Of a DNA stretch of 64,000 bases, positions 27,145 through 46,752 are shown in pieces. The DNA lies in the IMG/VR virus record IMGVR_UViG_3300028392_000060, positions 1-64,000 of that record. The stretch is one strand, 5' to 3'. The notes beneath the pieces were generated by a model that worked only from the letters and a program-made list of their open reading frames with translations, was not told the origin of the DNA and searched no databases. The DNA comes from a virus. A program made the position numbers and the translations under genes. Positions within the stretch are counted from its first letter, which is position 1, and each line of letters opens with the position of its first letter.

Positions 27145-27210
27145 AATTTTGATTTTAAAACAATCAGTATGATACACTTAAGATCTTAATCTAAAAAACC
27201 TAGGAGCATG

Positions 27211-29145
27211 ATGTCTAACACTATTAAAAACCCATATGAAAATTTTATTGCACTTTCTCGCTACGCCCGTTGGCTAGAAGAAGAAAATCGTCGTGAAACT
27301 TGGGGTGAAACAGTAGACCGATACTTTAAGTTTATGGTTATACAGTTACGTGAAAAACATGGGTATGTTCCTAATGATAAAATTCTTACAGAATTGCGTG
27401 ATGCAGTTTTTAATCGTAATGTAATGCCATCAATGCGTTCTGTAATGACAGCAGGAGTAGCGTTAGAAAGAGAAAATGTTTCTGGATATAACTGTGCATT
27501 TCTTCCAGTAGATAATGCTAGATCATTTGATGAAGCTATGTATATCTTAATGTGTGGAACTGGTGTTGGATTTTCTGTTGAGTATAAGTATATTAATAAA
27601 CTCCCGCCACTTCCTGAAACGCTTGAAAAATCTTCTACTACAGTTATTGTAGGAGATTCAAAAGAAGGTTGGGCAAAAGCATATCGTGAATTTTTAGGAT
27701 TACTTTGGGCAGGACAAATTCCACAAATTGATGTTAGTAAAGTTCGCCCTGCAGGTGCACGTCTTAAAACAATGGGCGGAAGATCATCTGGTCCACAACC
27801 ATTGGTTAATCTTTTTGATTTTACAGTACAAATATTTAAGGGAGCGCTTGGTCGCAGCCTTAAACCAATTGAATGTCATGACATTATGTGTAAAGTTGGA
27901 GAGGTTGTAGTTGTTGGCGGTGTTCGTCGTTCTGCAATGATATCTCTTTCAAATATAAACGATATTGAAATGGCAGCAGCAAAATCTGGAAATTGGTGGG
28001 AAAAAAATTCTCAAAGATCTTTGTCAAATAATTCAGTTGCATATTCTCGCAAACCAGAAATGGCTCAATTTATTGCAGAATGGAAATCTTTATATGATTC
28101 TAAATCAGGAGAAAGAGGGATTTATAATGTTGCCGCAGCACAATCTCAAGCCGCAAAATATGGAAGAAGAAGTGCTGATATACATTATGGAACTAACCCA
28201 TGTTCTGAAATTATTTTAAGACCATATCAATTTTGTAATCTTTCAGAAGTTGTTCTTCGTGAAAAAGATACAGTTGATGATGTTGCAAATAAAGTTCGTC
28301 TTGCATCTATTTTGGGTACATGGCAATCAACACTTACAGACTTTAAATACATTCGTAAAATTTGGAAAGACAATACAGAAGAAGAACGTTTACTTGGAGT
28401 TTCTTTAACTGGCCAATTTGGGCATAAGTTTTTTTCAGGACAAGAGGGAACAGAAAAACTTTCTTTAGTACTTGACAGACTTCGTATGCTTGCGGTTGAA
28501 ACAAATGTTGAAGAAGCAGAGAAAATTGGGATTCCATCTTCAGCAGCAGTAACTTGTGTTAAACCATCAGGCACAGTATCTCAATTGGTCGGGGTAAGTT
28601 CAGGAATGCACCCATGGCATTCAGATTATTATATTAGAACTGTAAGAGGTTCTAAAAATGATCCTATTTCACAATTTTTAAAAGACTCTGGAATTCCAAC
28701 AGAAGATGATGTAATGAAACCAAATGAAACATATGTATTTTCATTTCCAGTAAAATCTCCATCACATGCTATTACTAGAAATAAATTAACAGCATTACAA
28801 CAACTTGAAATTTGGCTAACATATCAAAGACATTGGTGTGAACACAAACCATCTATAACCGTATCTGTAAAAGAAGAAGAATGGATGGAAGTAGGCGCTT
28901 GGGTTTATAAGCATTTTGATGAAGTTTCTGGAATATCATTTTTACCATATTCTGAGCATACATATGTTCAAGCTCCTTATCAAGAAATTGAAAAAGAACA
29001 ATACTTGGCTCTTGAAGAAAAAATGCCTAAAAATATTGATTGGAATGCATTGTCTTTATACGAACTGGAAGATTCTACAACTGGGTCTCAAGCTCTAGCT
29101 TGCGTAAGCGGAGAATGTGAAATTGTAGATATTGGTCAAAATTGA
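27211..29145 (+). CDS. nrdJ: adenosylcobalamin-dependent ribonucleotide reductase
   Basis: 644 residues from ATG 27211; ATG 27208 lies only one base after AGGAG, so 27211 is preferred. Landmarks of the class II monomeric RTPR type: N-C-A-F-L-P-V-D near residue 96, M-C-G-T-G-V-G-F-S near 115, N-P-C-S-E-I-I-L near 330, and a C-terminal redox pair C631-x4-C636. Makes deoxynucleotides for phage replication, needs coenzyme B12 and a dithiol donor (thioredoxin at 3045). No intein seen. Confidence 0.92.
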   Translation: MSNTIKNPYENFIALSRYARWLEEENRRETWGETVDRYFKFMVIQLREKHGYVPNDKILTELRDAVFNRNVMPSMRSVMTAGVALERENVSGYNCAFLPVDNARSFDEAMYILMCGTGVGFSVEYKYINKLPPLPETLEKSSTTVIVGDSKEGWAKAYREFLGLLWAGQIPQIDVSKVRPAGARLKTMGGRSSGPQPLVNLFDFTVQIFKGALGRSLKPIECHDIMCKVGEVVVVGGVRRSAMISLSNINDIEMAAAKSGNWWEKNSQRSLSNNSVAYSRKPEMAQFIAEWKSLYDSKSGERGIYNVAAAQSQAAKYGRRSADIHYGTNPCSEIILRPYQFCNLSEVVLREKDTVDDVANKVRLASILGTWQSTLTDFKYIRKIWKDNTEEERLLGVSLTGQFGHKFFSGQEGTEKLSLVLDRLRMLAVETNVEEAEKIGIPSSAAVTCVKPSGTVSQLVGVSSGMHPWHSDYYIRTVRGSKNDPISQFLKDSGIPTEDDVMKPNETYVFSFPVKSPSHAITRNKLTALQQLEIWLTYQRHWCEHKPSITVSVKEEEWMEVGAWVYKHFDEVSGISFLPYSEHTYVQAPYQEIEKEQYLALEEKMPKNIDWNALSLYELEDSTTGSQALACVSGECEIVDIGQN

Positions 29146-37734: not shown

Positions 37735-38349
37735 ATGGCTTTAAACAAGCTACAACATCAATATACTGAACCCTTTAAAGTATCTGCATTAAATGTTGAC
37801 AGTAATTTAAACGTTGGCGGAATTGTAAATGCTTCTAATTTTACAATAAATGGTAAACCATTAAGTGTTGATCTATCTGGAGTAATTAATAATAGTCTTA
37901 CAACCACTACTGGAGATTTAATTTATGCTTCTTCAGCTAATACCCCCGCTCGTTTAGGAATTGGTTCTACAAATCAAGTTCTTACAGTAGTAGGTGGCGT
38001 ACCAGCATGGGCCGCAGCAACTGGAGGCGGGGCAACAACCACTACATTTACTTTATCTTCAAATACAATTACAACTGTAGAAACTGTAGCATTATCTACA
38101 TTTACCACAATTGAATATACATTATCAATTAAACAAGGAACAAAAATAAGAAGTTCTAAGATATATGTACAAACTGATGGATCAAGCAATGTTGATTATG
38201 TAGAATATGCAGTAATGTCAACTGGAGGAACAATGACGGGAATTTCAATAGTTTCCGCCCTATCTAGCACAAATATGATTTTACAAGCAACAATAACAGA
38301 TGCTGCTTCAACAAATGCTACAATTAAATATCAAAAAGTGACAATATAA
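37735..38349 (+). CDS. tail fibre-related protein
   Basis: 204 residues. N-terminal shaft-like segment (N-V-D-S-N-L-N-V-G-G-I-V-N-A-S-N-F-T), then A-R-L-G-I-G-S-T-N-Q-V-L-T-V-V-G-G, common in phage fibres, then a beta C-terminus. Ends one base before the first propeller gene. Confidence 0.68.
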   Translation: MALNKLQHQYTEPFKVSALNVDSNLNVGGIVNASNFTINGKPLSVDLSGVINNSLTTTTGDLIYASSANTPARLGIGSTNQVLTVVGGVPAWAAATGGGATTTTFTLSSNTITTVETVALSTFTTIEYTLSIKQGTKIRSSKIYVQTDGSSNVDYVEYAVMSTGGTMTGISIVSALSSTNMILQATITDAASTNATIKYQKVTI

Positions 38350-38350
38350 A

Positions 38351-40573
38351 ATGGCAATTCAACCATTTGAAATTACAGGCAATTTAACAGTAGATGGAAA
38401 TTATAAAAACCCTGTTGTAACTAATCCATTATTTGTTGCAGTATCAAACTCAACAACAGCCGTATCATCAACAGATAGCATAACCTGGACGTTACGTACT
38501 ATGCCATCATCTGCAAATTGGAGTTCAATAACCTATGGCAATGGAGTATTTGTTGCAATAGCAGGATCTCCATCAACCTCAGCAGCCTCATCAATTGATG
38601 GAATAACATGGTCTTTAAGAACTATGCCGTCATCTGCAAATTGGATAGCAGTAACTTATGGCAATGGAGTATTTGCTGCAGTAACATTTAGTTCATCATC
38701 AGCAGCCTCATCAACTGATGGCATTACTTGGTCTTTAAGAACTTTGCCAGTAGCTGCAGGTTGGCAATCAGTAACTTATGGCAATGGAGTATTTTTTGTA
38801 GTAGTATATGCCTCTACAACAGCAGCTTCATCAACTGATGGTATAACTTGGGCCTTACGTACTTTGCCATCATCTGCAGCATGGTATTCAGTAACTTACG
38901 GCAATGGAGTATTTGCTGCAGTAGCAAATAGCTCAAACTCAGCCGCCTCATCAACCAATGGCGTAACTTGGACATTACGCACTTTGCCAGTATCTGCAAC
39001 CTGGTATTCAGTAACTTATGGCAACGGAGTATTTGCTGCAGTAACAAACAGCTCAACAGCAGCAGCTTCATCAACTGATGGCATAACTTGGTCCTTACGT
39101 ACTTTGCCATCATCTCCAGCATGGTATTCAGTAACTTACGGCAATGGAGTATTTGCTGCAGTAGCAAATAGCTCAACAGCAGCAGCTTCATCAACCAATG
39201 GTATTACTTGGGCCTTACGTACTTTGCCATCAACTGCAACTTGGCAATCAGTAACCTATGGCATTTCAACTCAAATTAATTTAGTTCCTGCATCTACTTT
39301 AATCCCAAATAATCAAAATGTAACTTCTAACATTCAAACACAATTAAATGCATTAGCACCTTTAAATAACCCAACATTAACATCTGCAAGTTTAATATCA
39401 AGTAATTTACAAAGTAATGTATTTGCTGCAGTAGCACAATCCTCAACCTCAGCAGCTTCATCAACCGATGGTATAACATGGACTCTAAGAACTATGCCAT
39501 CATCTACAACTTGGATAGCAGTAACTTATGGCAATGGAGTATTTGCTGCAGTAGCATATAGCTCAACAGCAGCAGCTTCATCAACCGATGGTATTACTTG
39601 GGCCTTACGCACTTTGCCAGCATCTGCAATTTGGGTTTCAATATCTTATGGCAATGGAGTATTTGCTGCAGTAGCACAAAGCTCAACCTCAGCCGCCTCA
39701 TCAACCAATGGCGTAACTTGGACATTACGCACTTTGCCATCATCTGCAACTTGGCAATCATTAGCTTATGGCAATGGAGTATTTGTTGCAGTAGCACTTA
39801 GCACAACAGCAGCAGCTTCATCAACCGATGGTATTACTTGGGCCTTACGTACTCTGCCATCATCTACAGGTGCAGTAACTTATGGCAATGGAGTATTTGC
39901 TGCAGTATCAAATGGCACATCATCAGCAGCCTCATCAACTGATGGTATAACCTGGACGTTACGTACTATGCCATCAGCTACAGCATGGTTTTCAGTAACT
40001 TACGGCAACGGAGTATTTGCTGCAGTAGCAAATAGCTCAACAACAGCAGCCTCATCAACCAATGGCATAACATGGACTCTAAGAACTTTGCCAGTATCTG
40101 CAAATTGGTATTCAGTAACTTATGGCAATGGAGTATTTGCTGCAGTTGTACAAGGTTCAACTTCGGCAGCCTCATCAACTGATGGAATAACATGGTCTTT
40201 AAGAACTATGCCAGTATCTGTATTTTGGCAATCAGTAACTTCAGCACCAACCCAATTTTCAATAAATTCACAATCAATTCAAGGGCAATATGTAGGCCCA
40301 ATTACAACTCCAACATATACTGTAGGGCCATATGATAAATATATAACTATTAATACAACAGCAACGCATACTATAACCCTTCCCGCCCCAGGTTTATATC
40401 CAAATAGAGAAATAACAATAAAACAAATTGCTGCGTTTACTGTTGTTTCCGCATCTTCTAACGTAATTCCGCTTACATCAAATACGGCGGGAACTGCAAT
40501 ACTTTCTGGATTAGGTAAATTTGCAACATTAATATCTGACGGTTATAACTGGATAATAAGGGAATCTAATTAA
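38351..40573 (+). CDS. paired seven-bladed beta-propeller tail protein 1
   Basis: 740 residues. N-terminal F-E-I-T-G-N-L-T-V-D anchor; seven repeats of about 40 residues with S-T-D-G-I-T-W (Asp-box-like) and T-Y-G-N-G-V-F; a helical linker (L-V-P-A-S-T-L-I-P-N-N-Q-N-V-T) near residues 315-355; seven more repeats; then a C-terminal domain with T-I-T-L-P and R-E-I-T-I-K. Seven plus seven repeats imply two seven-bladed propellers. Likely carbohydrate or receptor binding (inference). Confidence 0.82.
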   Translation: MAIQPFEITGNLTVDGNYKNPVVTNPLFVAVSNSTTAVSSTDSITWTLRTMPSSANWSSITYGNGVFVAIAGSPSTSAASSIDGITWSLRTMPSSANWIAVTYGNGVFAAVTFSSSSAASSTDGITWSLRTLPVAAGWQSVTYGNGVFFVVVYASTTAASSTDGITWALRTLPSSAAWYSVTYGNGVFAAVANSSNSAASSTNGVTWTLRTLPVSATWYSVTYGNGVFAAVTNSSTAAASSTDGITWSLRTLPSSPAWYSVTYGNGVFAAVANSSTAAASSTNGITWALRTLPSTATWQSVTYGISTQINLVPASTLIPNNQNVTSNIQTQLNALAPLNNPTLTSASLISSNLQSNVFAAVAQSSTSAASSTDGITWTLRTMPSSTTWIAVTYGNGVFAAVAYSSTAAASSTDGITWALRTLPASAIWVSISYGNGVFAAVAQSSTSAASSTNGVTWTLRTLPSSATWQSLAYGNGVFVAVALSTTAAASSTDGITWALRTLPSSTGAVTYGNGVFAAVSNGTSSAASSTDGITWTLRTMPSATAWFSVTYGNGVFAAVANSSTTAASSTNGITWTLRTLPVSANWYSVTYGNGVFAAVVQGSTSAASSTDGITWSLRTMPVSVFWQSVTSAPTQFSINSQSIQGQYVGPITTPTYTVGPYDKYITINTTATHTITLPAPGLYPNREITIKQIAAFTVVSASSNVIPLTSNTAGTAILSGLGKFATLISDGYNWIIRESN

Positions 40574-43500
40574 TGGCTAATTTATCATTTGAAATTACAG
40601 GAGATATACAAGCAGATGCAAATTATAGATATCCTAGTCTACCCACTCCATTATTTGTTTCAGTAGCAAACGGCTCAACATCAGCAGCCTCATCAACCGA
40701 CGGCATAACATGGTCTTTGCAAACTTTGCCATCATCTGCATTTTGGGAATCATTAGCTTATGGCAATGGAGTATTTGTTTCAGCAGCAAATAACTCAACC
40801 ACAGCAGCCTCATCAACTGATGGCATTACATGGTCTTTAAGAACTTTGCCAGTATCTGCAAACTGGTTTTCATCAGCTTATGGCAATGGAGTATTTGCTG
40901 CAATAGCATATGGCACAACAGCAGCCGCCTCATCAACTAATGGTATTACATGGACTTTACGTACTATGCCATCATCTGCATTTTGGGAATCATTATCTTA
41001 TGGCAATGGAGTATTTGTTGCAGCAGCAAACAGCACAACCACAGCAGCCTCATCAACTGATGGCATTACTTGGTCTTTAAGAACTTTGCCAGTATCTGCA
41101 AATTGGCTTACAACAACTTATGGTAATGGAGTATTTATTGCAGCAGCAAACAGCTCAACATCAGCAGCCTCATCAACCGATGGTATTACATGGTCCTTAC
41201 GTACTTTGCCAACATTGGCATATTGGTATTCAATAACTTATGGCAATGGAGTATTTGTTGCAGCAGCAAACAGCACAACCACAGCAGCCTCATCAACTGA
41301 TGGCATTACTTGGTCTTTAAGAACTTTGCCAGTAGCTGCAGCTTGGTCTTCAACAGCTTATGGCAATGGATTATTTATTGCAGTAGCACAAAGCTCAACA
41401 TCAGCTTCATCAACCAATGGTATTACTTGGAATCTACGCACTTTGCCATCAGATACAGGTTGGTATTCAGTAACTTATGGCACTCAACCTCCATTAATTG
41501 TCCCCGCATCTACTTTAATCCCAAATAATCAAAATGTTACATCAAATATTCAAACACAAATAAATCAATTAGCACCTTTAAATAACTCAACATTAACATC
41601 TGCAAGTTTAATATCAAGTAATTTACAAAGTAATGTATTTGCTGCAGTAGCATATAGCTCAACATCAGCAGCAACATCAACTGATGGTATAACTTGGACT
41701 TTACGTACTTTGCCATCATCTGCAAACTGGCAAGCAATAACTTATGGCAATGGAGTATTTGCTGCAGTAGCAACAACATCATCAACTACAGCAACCTCAT
41801 CAACTGATGGTATAACTTGGACTTTAAGAACTTTGTCATCATCTGCATATTGGCAATCATTAGCTTATGGCAATGGAGTATTTGTTGCAATATCAAACTC
41901 AACAACAGCCGTATCATCAACAGATGGCATAACTTGGACTACAAGAACTTTTCCATCATCTGCAAACTGGCAAGCAATAACTTATGGCAATGGAGTATTT
42001 GCTGCAGTAGCAAATGGCATAACAACAGCAGCCTCATCAACTGATGGTATTACTTGGTCTTTAAGAACTTTGCCAGTAGCTGGAAACTGGTATTTAATAA
42101 CTTACGGCAATGGAGTATTTGCTGCAGTAGTAAGTAGCTCAACCACAGCAGCCTCATCAACTGATGGAATAACATGGGCTTTAAGAACTTTACCAGTATC
42201 TACACTTTGGTATTCAATAACTTATGGCAATGGAGTATTTGCTGCAGTAGCAGGTAGCACAACCACAGCAGCCTCATCAACCGATGGCATAACATGGTCT
42301 TTAAGAACTATGCCAGCATCTGCAACTTGGGGTTCAATAACTTACGGTAATGGAGTATTTGTTGCAGCAGGATATAACTCAACCACAGCAGCCTCATCAA
42401 CCAATGGAATAACTTGGTCTTTAAGAACTTTGCCATCATCTGCAGCATGGCAATCAGTAACTTCAGCACCAACCCAATCTTCAATAAATTCACAATCAAT
42501 TCAAGGGCAAACAATTCAATATGTATCAACCAATACATATGTTGTAGGATTATATGATAAAAGTATAACATTTAATGGAACCGCAACATGTACAGTAACT
42601 TTACCAATTGCAGGACAATATCCAGGAAGAGAAATACATTTAAAAACAATTGCTGCATTTACTGTGATTTCTGCTTCTTCTAACGTATTCCCGCTCGCAA
42701 CAAATACGGCGGGAACTGCAATATTATCAGCAACAGCAGGAAAATATGCTAAATTAGTATCAGATGGATATTTCTGGGTTATAATGGAGGCTAACTAATA
42801 TGGCTAATTTACCTTTTGAAATTACATCAGATATAGCAGTAGATGGAAGTTATATTGATCCTACAGGAACTGTTTTAGTTCCCGCATCTACATTAATTAC
42901 AAATAATCAAAATGTAACTTCAAATATTCAAACACAAATAAATGGATTAGCAACTTTAAATAATACAACATTAACATCCGCAAATTTAATATCAAGTAAT
43001 TTACAAAGTAATGTATTTGTTGCAGTAGCACAAAGCTCAACAACAGCAGCCTCATCAACCGATGGTATTACATGGACGCTACGTACTTTGCCAGTATTTG
43101 CAAGTTGGTATTCAGTAACCTACGGCAATGGAGTATTTGCTGCAACAACAATTACCTCAACCTCAGCAGCTTCATCAACTGATGGCATAACTTGGTCCTT
43201 AAGAACTTTGCCAGTATCTGCAGCTTGGTATTCAGTAACCTATGGCAATGGATTATTTGCTGCAATATCAGGTAACTCATCAGCAGCTTCATCAACTGAT
43301 GGCATAACTTGGTCCTTAAGAACTTTGCCAGCAGCTTTAGGTTGGAATTCAGTAACTTATGGCAATGGAGTATTTGCTGTAGTTGTAATAGATTCAATTT
43401 CGGCAGCCTCATCAACTGATGGCATAACATGGACGCTACGCACTTTGCCAGCATCTGCAATTTGGACTTCAATAACTTATGGCAACGGAGTATTTGCTGC

Positions 43501-44820
43501 AGTAGCACAAAGCTCAACATCAGCAGCTTCATCAACTGATGGCATAACATGGACGCTACGCACTTTGCCATCATCTGCAAGTTGGTTTTCAGTAATTTAT
43601 GGCAATGGAGTATTTGCTGCAGTAGCATATAGCTCAACCTCAGCAGCCTCATCAACTGATGGCATAACATGGACGCTACGCACTTTGCCAGCATTTGCAA
43701 CTTGGCAATCAGTATCTTATAGTAATGGAGTATTTGTTGCAATAGCACAAAGCTCAACAACAGCAGCCTCATCAACCGATGGCATTACATGGTCTTTAAG
43801 AACTTTGCCAGCAAATGCATTTTGGAATTCAGTAACTTCAGCACCAATTCAATCTTCAATAAATTCTCAATCAATTCAAGGGCAAGTTATTAATTCAATT
43901 ACAACTCCATCTTATACCGTAGGACCTTATGATAAATATATTATTTATAATAGTTCAAACCTTAGTTCTACTGGAATATTTGCTGCAGTATCACAAGTCT
44001 CATCAACAACAGCAGCTTCATCAACTGATGGCATAACATGGACTTTAAGAACTTTGCCAACAGCTGCAGGTTGGTATGCAATATCTGCAGGAAATGGAGT
44101 ATTTATTGCATTAGGATCTAGTACAACCACAGCAGCCTCATCCTTCAACGGCACAACTTGGACTTTAAGAACTTTGCCAGTATCTACAAACTGGAAAAAT
44201 TCAATTTATGGTAATGGATTATTTGTTGCGCCATCATTTGGTAACTCAACAACAGCAGTTTCATCAACTGATGGTATAACTTGGTCACTACGCACTATGC
44301 CAGCAGCACTAAACTGGTCTTCAATAACTTATGGTAATGGAGTATTTGCTGCAGTATCAAGCAACAACATCACAACAGCAGCCTCATCAACCGATGGCAT
44401 AACATGGACTTTAACAACTTTACCAGTATCTGGCCTCTGGAGCTTAGCAACTTATGGTAATGGATTATTTGTTGCAGTAGCACAAAGCTCAACAACAGCA
44501 GCCTCATCAACTGATGGCATAACTTGGGCCTTACGTACTCTGCCAACAAATGCAATTTGGACATCAGCAGCTTATGGCAATGGAGTATTTGTTGTAGGAG
44601 GTGGAGCAAGTGGAACAACATCAACAGATGGAGTTACTTGGACTTTAAGAACTTTGGGTTTTATTTCACAGTCATTATCTTATGCCAATGGAATATTTGT
44701 TGGAATAGAATATAACTCAACAACAGCAGCCTCATCAACCAATGGCATAACATGGACTTTAAGAACTTTGCCAACATTGGCATATTGGACTGGAGTATCT
44801 TACGGCAACGGAATACTTGA
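38430..44820 (+). repeat. array of 42 Asp-box-like coding repeats across three genes
   Basis: Units of about 120-123 bp encode S-S-T-D-G-I-T-W, R-T-L-P, W and Y-G-N-G-V-F. They occur in six groups of seven (two per gene), separated by linkers. Neighbouring units are nearly identical at DNA level, so recombination between units or genes is likely. Confidence 0.85.
40573..42798 (+). CDS. paired seven-bladed beta-propeller tail protein 2
   Basis: 741 residues, paralogue of the previous gene with the same order: N-terminal anchor (F-E-I-T-G-D-I), seven repeats, linker with L-I-P-N-N-Q-N-V-T-S-N-I-Q, seven repeats, C-terminal domain (T-V-T-L-P, R-E-I-H-L-K). Start overlaps the upstream stop (TAATG). 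Confidence 0.82.
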   Translation: MANLSFEITGDIQADANYRYPSLPTPLFVSVANGSTSAASSTDGITWSLQTLPSSAFWESLAYGNGVFVSAANNSTTAASSTDGITWSLRTLPVSANWFSSAYGNGVFAAIAYGTTAAASSTNGITWTLRTMPSSAFWESLSYGNGVFVAAANSTTTAASSTDGITWSLRTLPVSANWLTTTYGNGVFIAAANSSTSAASSTDGITWSLRTLPTLAYWYSITYGNGVFVAAANSTTTAASSTDGITWSLRTLPVAAAWSSTAYGNGLFIAVAQSSTSASSTNGITWNLRTLPSDTGWYSVTYGTQPPLIVPASTLIPNNQNVTSNIQTQINQLAPLNNSTLTSASLISSNLQSNVFAAVAYSSTSAATSTDGITWTLRTLPSSANWQAITYGNGVFAAVATTSSTTATSSTDGITWTLRTLSSSAYWQSLAYGNGVFVAISNSTTAVSSTDGITWTTRTFPSSANWQAITYGNGVFAAVANGITTAASSTDGITWSLRTLPVAGNWYLITYGNGVFAAVVSSSTTAASSTDGITWALRTLPVSTLWYSITYGNGVFAAVAGSTTTAASSTDGITWSLRTMPASATWGSITYGNGVFVAAGYNSTTAASSTNGITWSLRTLPSSAAWQSVTSAPTQSSINSQSIQGQTIQYVSTNTYVVGLYDKSITFNGTATCTVTLPIAGQYPGREIHLKTIAAFTVISASSNVFPLATNTAGTAILSATAGKYAKLVSDGYFWVIMEAN

Positions 44821-45028
44821 TGCAACAATAACTCTTCCAAATGCTGGTATATACCCAGGTCGGGAAATTACAATAAAATCTTTAGGCAATGGCAGTATAA
44901 ATTCAAATTCTTCTAACGTAATTCCGCTTACATCAAATACGGCGGGAACTGCAATACTTTCTGGTGCAGGTAAGTTTGCCAGATTAGTTAGTGATGGATA
45001 CAATTGGGTAATTGTCAGATCAAATTAA
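42800..45028 (+). CDS. rearranged paired-propeller tail protein 3
   Basis: 742 residues. It has the same anchor, but goes straight to the linker; the first seven repeats correspond to the second propeller of the paralogues. The second seven-repeat group interrupts the C-terminal domain, between Y-D-K-Y-I-I and A-T-I-T-L-P. The modules are thus shuffled but the 7+7 count is kept. Repeat 2 of this group has S-F-N-G-T-T-W instead of the Asp-box. Confidence 0.82.
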   Translation: MANLPFEITSDIAVDGSYIDPTGTVLVPASTLITNNQNVTSNIQTQINGLATLNNTTLTSANLISSNLQSNVFVAVAQSSTTAASSTDGITWTLRTLPVFASWYSVTYGNGVFAATTITSTSAASSTDGITWSLRTLPVSAAWYSVTYGNGLFAAISGNSSAASSTDGITWSLRTLPAALGWNSVTYGNGVFAVVVIDSISAASSTDGITWTLRTLPASAIWTSITYGNGVFAAVAQSSTSAASSTDGITWTLRTLPSSASWFSVIYGNGVFAAVAYSSTSAASSTDGITWTLRTLPAFATWQSVSYSNGVFVAIAQSSTTAASSTDGITWSLRTLPANAFWNSVTSAPIQSSINSQSIQGQVINSITTPSYTVGPYDKYIIYNSSNLSSTGIFAAVSQVSSTTAASSTDGITWTLRTLPTAAGWYAISAGNGVFIALGSSTTTAASSFNGTTWTLRTLPVSTNWKNSIYGNGLFVAPSFGNSTTAVSSTDGITWSLRTMPAALNWSSITYGNGVFAAVSSNNITTAASSTDGITWTLTTLPVSGLWSLATYGNGLFVAVAQSSTTAASSTDGITWALRTLPTNAIWTSAAYGNGVFVVGGGASGTTSTDGVTWTLRTLGFISQSLSYANGIFVGIEYNSTTAASSTNGITWTLRTLPTLAYWTGVSYGNGILDATITLPNAGIYPGREITIKSLGNGSINSNSSNVIPLTSNTAGTAILSGAGKFARLVSDGYNWVIVRSN

Positions 45029-45385: not shown

Positions 45386-46051
45386 ATGGAACACTATGAC
45401 GTGTTGATTGCAACACCTGGATCCGTGTTAGAAGCACAATATGTAAAAAGTTTAGTTTTAACATTAGCCGAATGTGATAAACGTGGCATTTCTTATAAAT
45501 GGCTTAATGCTTATTCTTCTTTAGTGCATCATGCACGGGAATTAACTGCATCGGGCGGTACTGGATTAGAATTAAATCCAGATCATAAAGGTCCTGTAGG
45601 AGATTCTGTAACATATAAAAAGATATTCTGGATAGATTCAGATATTGCATGGACACCAGAACAATTTTTTAAAATTTATGATTCTGAATATGATGTAATT
45701 GCAGGATGTTATTTGTTAGCAGATGGAATTACAACTACAATACATCCATGGGGTAATAATAATGGAATTCCCGTCAATGAAATTTTACAAATGAAAGAAC
45801 CTTTAAAAGTACAAAGTATAGGGTTTGGATTTGTTGCAATGAAATCAGGAGTATTTGAAAAATTACCAAGACCCTGGTTTAAACATTTTGATCAAGCAGT
45901 AATGACATCTATGGGAAATCAAATTGTAGATTCTATAGGTGAAGACATATCTTGGTGTATTAAAGCATATCAGGCAGGAATAAATATTTATTTTGATCCC
46001 GCCGTTCTAGTCAATCATATGAAGAAAATGGAAATTAAATGGCCGAAGTAA
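45386..46051 (+). CDS. GT-A glycosyltransferase
   Basis: 221 residues: D-V-L-I-A-T-P opening, F-W-I-D-S-D-I-A-W (the D-x-D metal site, near residue 78), V-I-A-G-C-Y-L-L and a late G-E-D-I-S-W-C acceptor motif (E-D-x-x-(F/W)-C). GT2-like fold. Placed next to fibre genes, so it may glycosylate fibres or host wall polymers. SD AAAGGA. Confidence 0.8.
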   Translation: MEHYDVLIATPGSVLEAQYVKSLVLTLAECDKRGISYKWLNAYSSLVHHARELTASGGTGLELNPDHKGPVGDSVTYKKIFWIDSDIAWTPEQFFKIYDSEYDVIAGCYLLADGITTTIHPWGNNNGIPVNEILQMKEPLKVQSIGFGFVAMKSGVFEKLPRPWFKHFDQAVMTSMGNQIVDSIGEDISWCIKAYQAGINIYFDPAVLVNHMKKMEIKWPK

Positions 46052-46752
46052 AAAAGAAAAGTATTTATATAGCAACACCAATGTATAACTCTACATGTAG
46101 TGGGTATTATGCAAGAAGTCTAACAGATTTAGTAATCACATTATTACAAAATGGACATGAAGTACATTTTCAAGATGTATACAATTCCAGTTTAATAACA
46201 GAAGCTAGAAATTTTCTTACAGAAGATTTCCTTAGAAAAGGCTATGATTATATGTTATTTATAGATGCAGATCAAGGTTTTAATCCTATGGGTGTATTAA
46301 AAATGATTGAAGAAGATGAAGATGTTATTGCTGGTGTAGTCCCGCTTAAAATTATAAATTGGGATGGTGTACTACAAGCATCAAGGCAAGGTAAAATAGA
46401 TTTACAAAATTATACAACTGCACATAATGTTGTTCCTTTAAATGATTTACAAGCAGACAGAAACAAAAAAATTGAAGTAAAATCAGCGGGGACAGGATTA
46501 CTTCTTATAAGTCGTAAAGTATTTGAAATTTTAAAACCCCTAGTAAAAACATATAAATTTTCAGGTACACCTTGTTTAAATCTTAATCAAGGAGATTCTA
46601 TTTCTAATTTTTGGGATTTGTACATTGATGATGATGGAAATAAATTTGGAGAAGATGTTAATTTTTGTAAACTTTGGCGGGGAACTGGCGGAAAAGTTTA
46701 TACAACATTTTGGCCACAAGCTACACACATAGGAAATCACGTATATCGTTAA
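46039..46752 (+). CDS. GT-A glycosyltransferase, paralogue of 45386
   Basis: 237 residues: I-Y-I-A-T-P-M-Y-N, Y-M-L-F-I-D-A-D-Q-G-F (D-x-D near residue 77), V-I-A-G-V-V-P-L and G-E-D-V-N-F-C. Same motif order as its neighbour, overlapping it by 13 bases; a tandem pair adding two linkages is plausible. Confidence 0.8.
   Translation: MAEVKKKSIYIATPMYNSTCSGYYARSLTDLVITLLQNGHEVHFQDVYNSSLITEARNFLTEDFLRKGYDYMLFIDADQGFNPMGVLKMIEEDEDVIAGVVPLKIINWDGVLQASRQGKIDLQNYTTAHNVVPLNDLQADRNKKIEVKSAGTGLLLISRKVFEILKPLVKTYKFSGTPCLNLNQGDSISNFWDLYIDDDGNKFGEDVNFCKLWRGTGGKVYTTFWPQATHIGNHVYR

What the first reader, a model, noticed from the sequence alone, without database searches (positions are those of the whole stretch)
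38351..45028. Three consecutive tail proteins, each with two groups of exactly seven Asp-box-like repeats
Counting S-x-D-G-x-T-W units gives 7+7 in each gene despite different arrangement. This is strong evidence for paired seven-bladed propellers. Near-identical DNA units offer a ready route for recombination to vary receptor binding.
Basis: partly seen in the sequence, partly recalled or inferred. Interest (0 to 1): 0.74.

Follow-up and report, generated by a model that had tools for sequence, protein, structure and literature searches.

The report
Phage adhesins built from paired seven-blade propellers
Three neighbouring phage genes each encode two doughnut-shaped seven-bladed propellers, probably the parts that grip the bacterial surface, and comparison with a sister phage shows that individual blades are replaced so fast that their original order is lost while the number seven stays fixed.

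Summary
Genes 38351-40573, 40573-42798 and 42800-45028 each carry 14 units, 7+7, at 38-41-residue spacing. AlphaFold2 with 43 sequences gives a propeller at pLDDT 95-98 that superposes on solved seven-bladed propellers (Z 26-28, rmsd 2.4-2.8 A over about 270 residues). One of six propellers was modelled this way. Seven is the dominant group size in phage (94 of 146 groups) and bacterial (54 of 72) relatives, with a few exceptions, one of nine. Gene 3 differs: its second propeller sits inside the C-terminal domain. The DNA units are not near-identical (mean 75%, 52-93%). Against a sister phage, flanking segments are up to 97% identical, but blades at the same position match no better than any others. 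Variation falls in loops opposite the Asp-boxes (pN/pS 2.1 in the D-A loop, 0.17 in the Asp-box). Best reading: tail adhesins whose binding face is diversified on a fixed seven-blade scaffold. Binding and virion location are untested.

The parts
38351..40573 (+). gene 1 (740 aa), architecture head - propeller A - linker - propeller B - C-domain
38426..39262 (+). gene 1 propeller A, 7 s-Asp-box units, starts at strand B and ends at strand A
39263..39412 (+). gene 1 linker (VPASTLIPNNQNVTSNIQTQ...SNLQSN), shared with genes 2 and 3
39413..40243 (+). gene 1 propeller B, 7 units
40244..40570 (+). gene 1 C-terminal domain (unsplit), a module found in many phage proteins without propellers
40573..42798 (+). 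gene 2 (741 aa), same architecture as gene 1; start overlaps gene 1 stop by one base
40648..41481 (+). gene 2 propeller A, 7 units
41482..41628 (+). gene 2 linker
41629..42465 (+). gene 2 propeller B, 7 units
42466..42795 (+). gene 2 C-terminal domain, 97.3% aa identical to sister phage L001 while propeller B is 64.6%
42800..45028 (+). gene 3 (742 aa), rearranged: head - linker - propeller A - C-domain split by propeller B
43007..43840 (+). gene 3 propeller A, 7 units
43841..43963 (+). gene 3 C-domain, first part (28 of 37 residues identical to gene 1)
43964..44818 (+). gene 3 propeller B, inserted in the C-domain; modelled with alignment as a closed 7-bladed propeller (pLDDT 95-98)
44825..45025 (+). 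gene 3 C-domain, second part (48 of 67 residues identical to gene 1)

Best explanation
The three genes encode virion adhesins, most likely tail-fibre or tail-tip receptor-binding proteins of a long-tailed phage. Each carries two seven-bladed beta-propellers, every blade bearing a short Asp-box hairpin between strands C and D. Each propeller starts with strand B and ends with strand A, so the last strand A completes the first blade (3+1 closure). The Asp-box face is the conserved scaffold. The opposite face, formed by the D-A and B-C loops around the central funnel, carries variable, mostly uncharged residues (N, Y, Q, S, F, T, I) and probably binds a cell-surface ligand such as a glycan. Selection keeps seven blades per ring while blades are exchanged or converted among the 42 copies, or replaced from related phages, so the binding face changes without loss of closure. 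Whole propellers are also docked at three alternative sites of one backbone: between head and linker, between linker and C-domain, and inside the C-domain. Shown: unit count, predicted fold, insertion, loss of blade orthology, location of variation. Inferred: recombination as the cause, diversifying selection as the driver, ligand binding, tail location.
For: 7+7 in all three genes, chance expectation about 0.06 motifs per protein. AF2 with 43 sequences: pLDDT 95-98 over the propeller; VIA-align Z 28.2 to 1l0q (270 aligned residues, 2.4 A) and 26.0 to v31WRAP-T, a seven-bladed designer (271, 2.8 A). Seven dominates in phage relatives (94 of 146 groups) and bacterial relatives (54 of 72, with five 14-unit runs). 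Gene 2 versus L001: C-domain 97.3% aa, propellers 66.8 and 64.6%; identity is 71-84% across propellers and mostly 84-98% outside. Same-position blades no more alike than shuffled ones (p = 0.25 and 0.16; the near-identical sibling L003 as control gives p = 5e-5). pN/pS 0.17 in strand C plus Asp-box, 2.12 in the D-A loop (bootstrap 1.57-3.05), 2.53 in strand B. In known Asp-box propellers only the face opposite the Asp-boxes is functional (PMC2716378). Acidic and basic residues are rare (E 0.4-0.7%, K 0.5%), which fits binding better than catalysis. C-domain homologues lie in the head-tail and tail gene region in PfAn1 and DSL-LC05.
Against: No binding, structural or virion data. Only one of six propellers was modelled with an alignment; the C-domain is below pLDDT 60. 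pN/pS over 1 is clear in the window but only marginal in L001 (D-A loop 1.32, 0.97-2.16) and absent in L002 (1.06). The strand-B signal is mostly A/V exchanges, which may be tolerated core substitutions. PHROG labels the upstream 1390-aa protein 'head and packaging', so head fibres are possible. Loss of blade orthology could reflect wholesale replacement rather than blade exchange. Metagenome assembly of repeats can create false mosaics.
Confidence: 0.62

Rival explanations
1. Ordinary recently amplified propellers: the blades resemble each other because each propeller was amplified from one blade, and they drift neutrally; there is no ongoing exchange and no special selection.
For: Highly repetitive propellers are widespread in all major lineages (PMC9218822). 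Blades within one propeller are slightly more alike than the rest (0.754 versus about 0.747).
Against: The within-propeller excess is tiny, best matches cross genes and propellers, third bases agree across three phages, and pN/pS is strongly structured along the unit.
Confidence: 0.25
2. Whole propellers are swapped as cassettes between phages, so blade orthology is lost in one step without blade-level recombination.
For: Identity breaks sharply at propeller borders (97.5% in the C-domain of gene 2, 75.5% just before); propellers occupy three different docking sites; the number of propeller genes per array differs between phages (one to four).
Against: Does not explain why the six propellers within one genome are mutually equidistant with shared exact tracts of 40-98 bp.
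Confidence: 0.35
3. The propellers are glycan-cleaving enzymes (sialidase-, GH74- or lyase-like) rather than passive binders.
For: Asp-box propellers are common in glycosidases (PMC2716378), and phage endosialidases use the fold.
Against: Very few acidic residues (E 0.4-0.7%; the D content is largely the Asp-box itself) and no unit-breaking catalytic insert; variable rather than conserved residues on the presumed functional face.
Confidence: 0.07
4. Loop variation is made by a diversity-generating retroelement.
For: Codons in several loops vary at bases 1 and 2 with base 3 fixed.
Against: No reverse transcriptase in the 73.5 kb record (the record may be incomplete); the fixed third base is often A, which adenine mutagenesis would also change; variation is spread over 42 copies.
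Confidence: 0.02
5. Part of the pattern is an assembly artefact of collapsed or chimeric repeats.
For: Sibling contigs break inside gene 3 (starts at 42833, 42985, 43225), and the 10-SNP patch of L003 begins 123 bp from its contig end.
Against: An independent contig, L001, has two genes of the same order and architecture including the split C-domain, and 7 recurs in many unrelated contigs.
Confidence: 0.08

Closest known systems
Asp-box / s-Asp-box beta-propellers (Quistgaard and Thirup 2009, PMC2716378)
   Same: Hairpin motif between strands 3 and 4 of each blade; variable face opposite it; paired propellers separated by a domain (their type 4).
   Different: That survey knew s-Asp-boxes only in five-bladed GH32/GH43 propellers (plus one sialidase blade), 1-3 per protein, no n-bladed structure with n Asp-boxes, and nearly always 1+3 closure. 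Here: s-Asp-box in 7 of 7 blades and 3+1 closure. Structures solved after 2009 were not surveyed for this.
Highly repetitive propellers, e.g. Nostoc WRAP (PMC9218822, PMC6805158)
   Same: High internal identity; WRAP also folds its 14 blades as 7+7.
   Different: WD40-like not Asp-box; WRAP blades are nearly identical, here about 64% aa identity.
Podospora HET-D/HET-E WD40 sensors (PMC12222747)
   Same: Blades kept alike by concerted evolution, few hypervariable codons on the binding face, predicted 7+7 propellers.
   Different: Fungal immune sensors, WD40 type, with variable repeat number; here the number is fixed at 7 in all six.
Propeller-bearing phage adhesion proteins: phi11 Gp45 (5-bladed) and PhiKZ gp131C (7-bladed) (PMC4901313)
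   Same: Beta-propeller domain in a phage protein at the host-contact end.
   Different: No blade array over three tandem genes and no repeated s-Asp-box units were described for them in the paper read; Gp45 has one propeller per chain.

Membership tests
Seven-bladed beta-propeller fold | Closed ring of seven four-stranded blades | tested here: met
   AF2 with alignment, gene 3 propeller B: pLDDT 95-98, Z 26.0 to seven-bladed v31WRAP-T, 271 residues; prediction, not a solved structure; other five propellers by homology
Canonical Asp-box propeller | SxDxGxTW motif | tested here: not met
   0 matches in any of the three proteins
s-Asp-box propeller | S/T-x-D/N-x-x-x-W/F/Y motif between strands 3 and 4 | tested here: met
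   42 of 42 units; position between strands C and D by DSSP of the model
s-Asp-box propeller as known in 2009 (GH32/GH43) | Five blades, one to three motifs | tested here: not met
   seven units, seven motifs; known range from PMC2716378
Pfam EPTP repeat (PF03736) | Score above the curated cut-off of 21 bits | tested here: met
   60.8, 58.2 and 36.7 bits; repeats inflate whole-protein scores, so homology to epitempin is not claimed
Highly repetitive propeller | Median internal blade identity above 60% (PMC9218822) | tested here: inconclusive
   mean pairwise aa identity over all 42 units is 64%; the median per propeller was not computed
Phage tail receptor-binding protein | Present in the tail and binds a host receptor | not testable with these tools
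   only context: shared C-domain in tail-region genes of other phages, adjacent virion protein gene
Diversity-generating retroelement target | Reverse transcriptase and template repeat nearby | tested here: inconclusive
   no RVT_1 match in the 73,470-base record, which may be a fragment

The most novel reading that the evidence does not exclude
The phage keeps a library of 42 exchangeable blades over three genes and reshuffles them by gene conversion, generating new combinations of binding-face residues on six rings whose size is locked at seven: a repertoire-like receptor diversification system without a dedicated enzyme.
Probability: 0.25. Interest if true: 0.75.

Novelty: new variant of a known kind. 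Interest (0 to 1): 0.55.

Why it matters
It offers a phage counterpart of the fungal repeat-propeller sensors: a binding scaffold in which blade number is held constant while blade identity turns over. If true, host recognition by such phages could be studied as exchange of 40-residue cassettes, and the six propellers in one genome give an internal comparison.

Tried and rejected
Single-sequence AF2 of whole gene 1 (pLDDT 63; Foldseek against PDB gave only meaningless hits, TM about 0.1), replaced by the alignment-based model. Alignment versions A1 and A2 with C-domain fragments were misaligned and not used for folding. phmmer, and a profile of A3, against PDB sequences found no convincing relative. 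Sortilin-Vps10 family: no match in the record. NCBIfam: none. Counting by a strand-A motif gave runs of 15 or 16 in the window proteins and 8 in places where 7 units are seen, presumably because linkers matched; the Asp-box count was kept. Groups of 8 in L017 and L025 proved by eye to be seven blades plus a split strand. Upstream gene 37735-38349 as anchor for siblings: only weak partial matches. Genome scan with gene 2: no relative; with the propeller alignment: very many.

Full report
What is there. The window is bases 1-64000 of a 73,470-base IMG/VR phage record. Three adjacent + strand genes encode proteins of 740, 741 and 742 aa. Each carries 14 repeats of about 40 residues in two runs of seven. 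Strand order within the unit follows the model's DSSP and the sequence: A = WxSVTYG, B = GVFAAVA, C = STxAAS, then the box STDGITW, and D = TWTLRTLP. The box fits the short Asp-box consensus S/T-x-D/N-x-x-x-W/F/Y in 42 of 42 units and the canonical SxDxGxTW in none (definitions in PMC2716378). Shuffled proteins give about 0.06 matches on average.

Fold. A single-sequence prediction of gene 1 was poor and its structure search meaningless. The second job used gene 3 from 43841 to 45025 with 42 further sequences (A3). The propeller came out at pLDDT 95-98, residues 45-325. It superposes on seven-bladed propellers: Z 28.2 to 1l0q (270 residues, 2.4 A), Z 26.0 to v31WRAP-T, described as a seven-bladed designer protein (271 residues, 2.8 A). 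The best viral match is a DUF6242 protein of an uncultured phage (TM 0.84 on the target, rmsd 1.4). The model starts with strand B and ends with strand A, so the ring needs the last A to complete the first blade. Relatives such as L017, L025 and L033 instead start with D and end with A-B-C, the usual 1+3 closure described in PMC2716378. Both permutations give seven.

Is seven conserved? Of 146 runs in the first set of phage loci, 94 have seven units, 13 six, 13 eight, and two 14. Many of the short ones are cut by contig ends, the eights that I checked are seven blades plus a split strand, and the 14s that I checked are most simply two sevens in tandem. In bacterial and MAG loci 54 of 72 runs have seven and five have 14. 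L053 has nine clear units. These counts include redundant contigs. So seven is the rule with rare exceptions.

Architecture. Genes 1 and 2 read head, propeller, linker, propeller, C-domain. Gene 3 reads head, linker, propeller, first part of the C-domain, propeller, second part of the C-domain. The two parts match gene 1's continuous C-domain at 28 of 37 and 48 of 67 residues. The sister contig L001 has the same split in its second gene. A domain inserted into a loop like this needs ends that lie close together, which a closed ring provides (inference). The C-domain alone is a common phage module: of 68 ORFs with a C-domain-like motif only those of this phage group carry the propeller units. 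In PfAn1 and DSL-LC05 it lies in the head-tail and tail gene region.

Evolution. The 42 units average 75% DNA and 64% aa identity, with almost no difference between same propeller, same gene or other gene. Compared with L001, whose neighbouring genes are mostly 84-97% identical over 200-base steps, propeller stretches fall to 71-84%. In gene 2 the C-domain is 97.3% aa identical and the adjoining propeller 64.6%, with third-position identity 94.6% and 76.5%. Hence the propeller has a different history from its flank; selection on amino acids alone would not be expected to lower third-position identity this much. Same-position blades are no more alike than permuted ones (p 0.25 and 0.16). The control with near-identical L003 shows that the test detects retained order, although a control at intermediate divergence is lacking. 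L003 differs from the window at 13 of 7506 positions, 10 of them within 124 bp at the linker and first blade of gene 3; the patch is closer to gene 2 (36 of 40 versus 33 of 40 for the linker part; 34 of 35 versus 32 of 35 for the blade part). This looks like gene conversion but lies near a contig end, so chimeric assembly is not excluded.

Where it varies. The most variable unit columns are 5, 29 and 31, in the B-C turn and the D-A loop. By topology these lie on the face opposite the Asp-boxes, the face used for function in the Asp-box propellers surveyed in PMC2716378. I could not map them on model coordinates, which the tools do not give. pN/pS is 0.17 for strand C plus box, 2.12 for the D-A loop, 1.01 for the B-C loop and 2.53 for strand B. 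In L001 the D-A value is 1.32 (0.97-2.16), in L002 1.06. In several loop columns the third base is fixed or nearly so while bases 1 and 2 vary, and the same third base dominates in L001 and L002. Genome codon usage predicts a third-base diversity of 0.56 in variable columns, observed 0.25. This fits young, homogenised units with amino-acid-changing variation, but pairwise counts among recombining copies are not a formal test of selection.

Which phage. It has a portal about 54% identical to those of Streptomyces phages, a tape-measure protein at 60157-65103 of the record, so a long tail, and a 1390-aa protein 47% identical to cyanophage virion structural proteins. The host is unknown; an actinobacterium is a guess from the portal.

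Mechanism. The most likely role is host adhesion through the variable faces of six propellers. Few charged residues and no conserved acidic set argue against an enzyme. Phage adhesion proteins with propellers are known (phi11 Gp45 and PhiKZ gp131C, PMC4901313). The closest evolutionary analogue is the Podospora HET-D/HET-E WD40 domain, with concerted evolution and hypervariable sites on the interaction face (PMC12222747); this is an analogy of evolutionary mode, not of family.

Verdict. The structure claim is well supported, the recombination claim indirectly, and receptor binding is inferred. The ingredients are known; the combination (s-Asp-box in all seven blades, 3+1 closure, three tandem genes, a propeller nested in the C-domain, loss of blade orthology at fixed number) I did not find described in six literature searches, which cover open-licence papers only.

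Noticed in passing
window 38814-39194 (-), 43152-43775 (-): Antisense TTG ORFs across the repeats look like by-products of the repeat's base composition, not genes.
   Followed up: no
L053:7755 ORF (555 aa): A relative with nine clear units of 40-43 residues, an exception to seven.
   Followed up: partly
L006, L007, L028: Thirteen or fourteen units in an unbroken run, most simply two seven-bladed propellers in direct succession, like GH74 enzymes.
   Followed up: partly
L214, ORFs starting 4067, 5275, 6477 and 7526: Four consecutive single-propeller genes of seven units each, upstream of the same glycosyltransferase-like gene as in the window; L215 has none.
   Followed up: no
window 42956-43079 versus L003: Ten of 13 differences of a sibling contig are clustered in 124 bp: conversion patch or assembly chimera.
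   Followed up: partly
blade units, columns 26, 28, 32, 33: Third codon base nearly or fully fixed (A) while the amino acid varies among S, V, A, T and others; the same base dominates in L001 and L002.
   Followed up: partly
window 45386-46752: Two adjacent genes of phrog_1574, with weak similarity to glycosyltransferases, next to the propeller genes in several phages.
   Followed up: no
window 27208-29145: Ribonucleotide reductase gene next to the virion protein genes.
   Followed up: no
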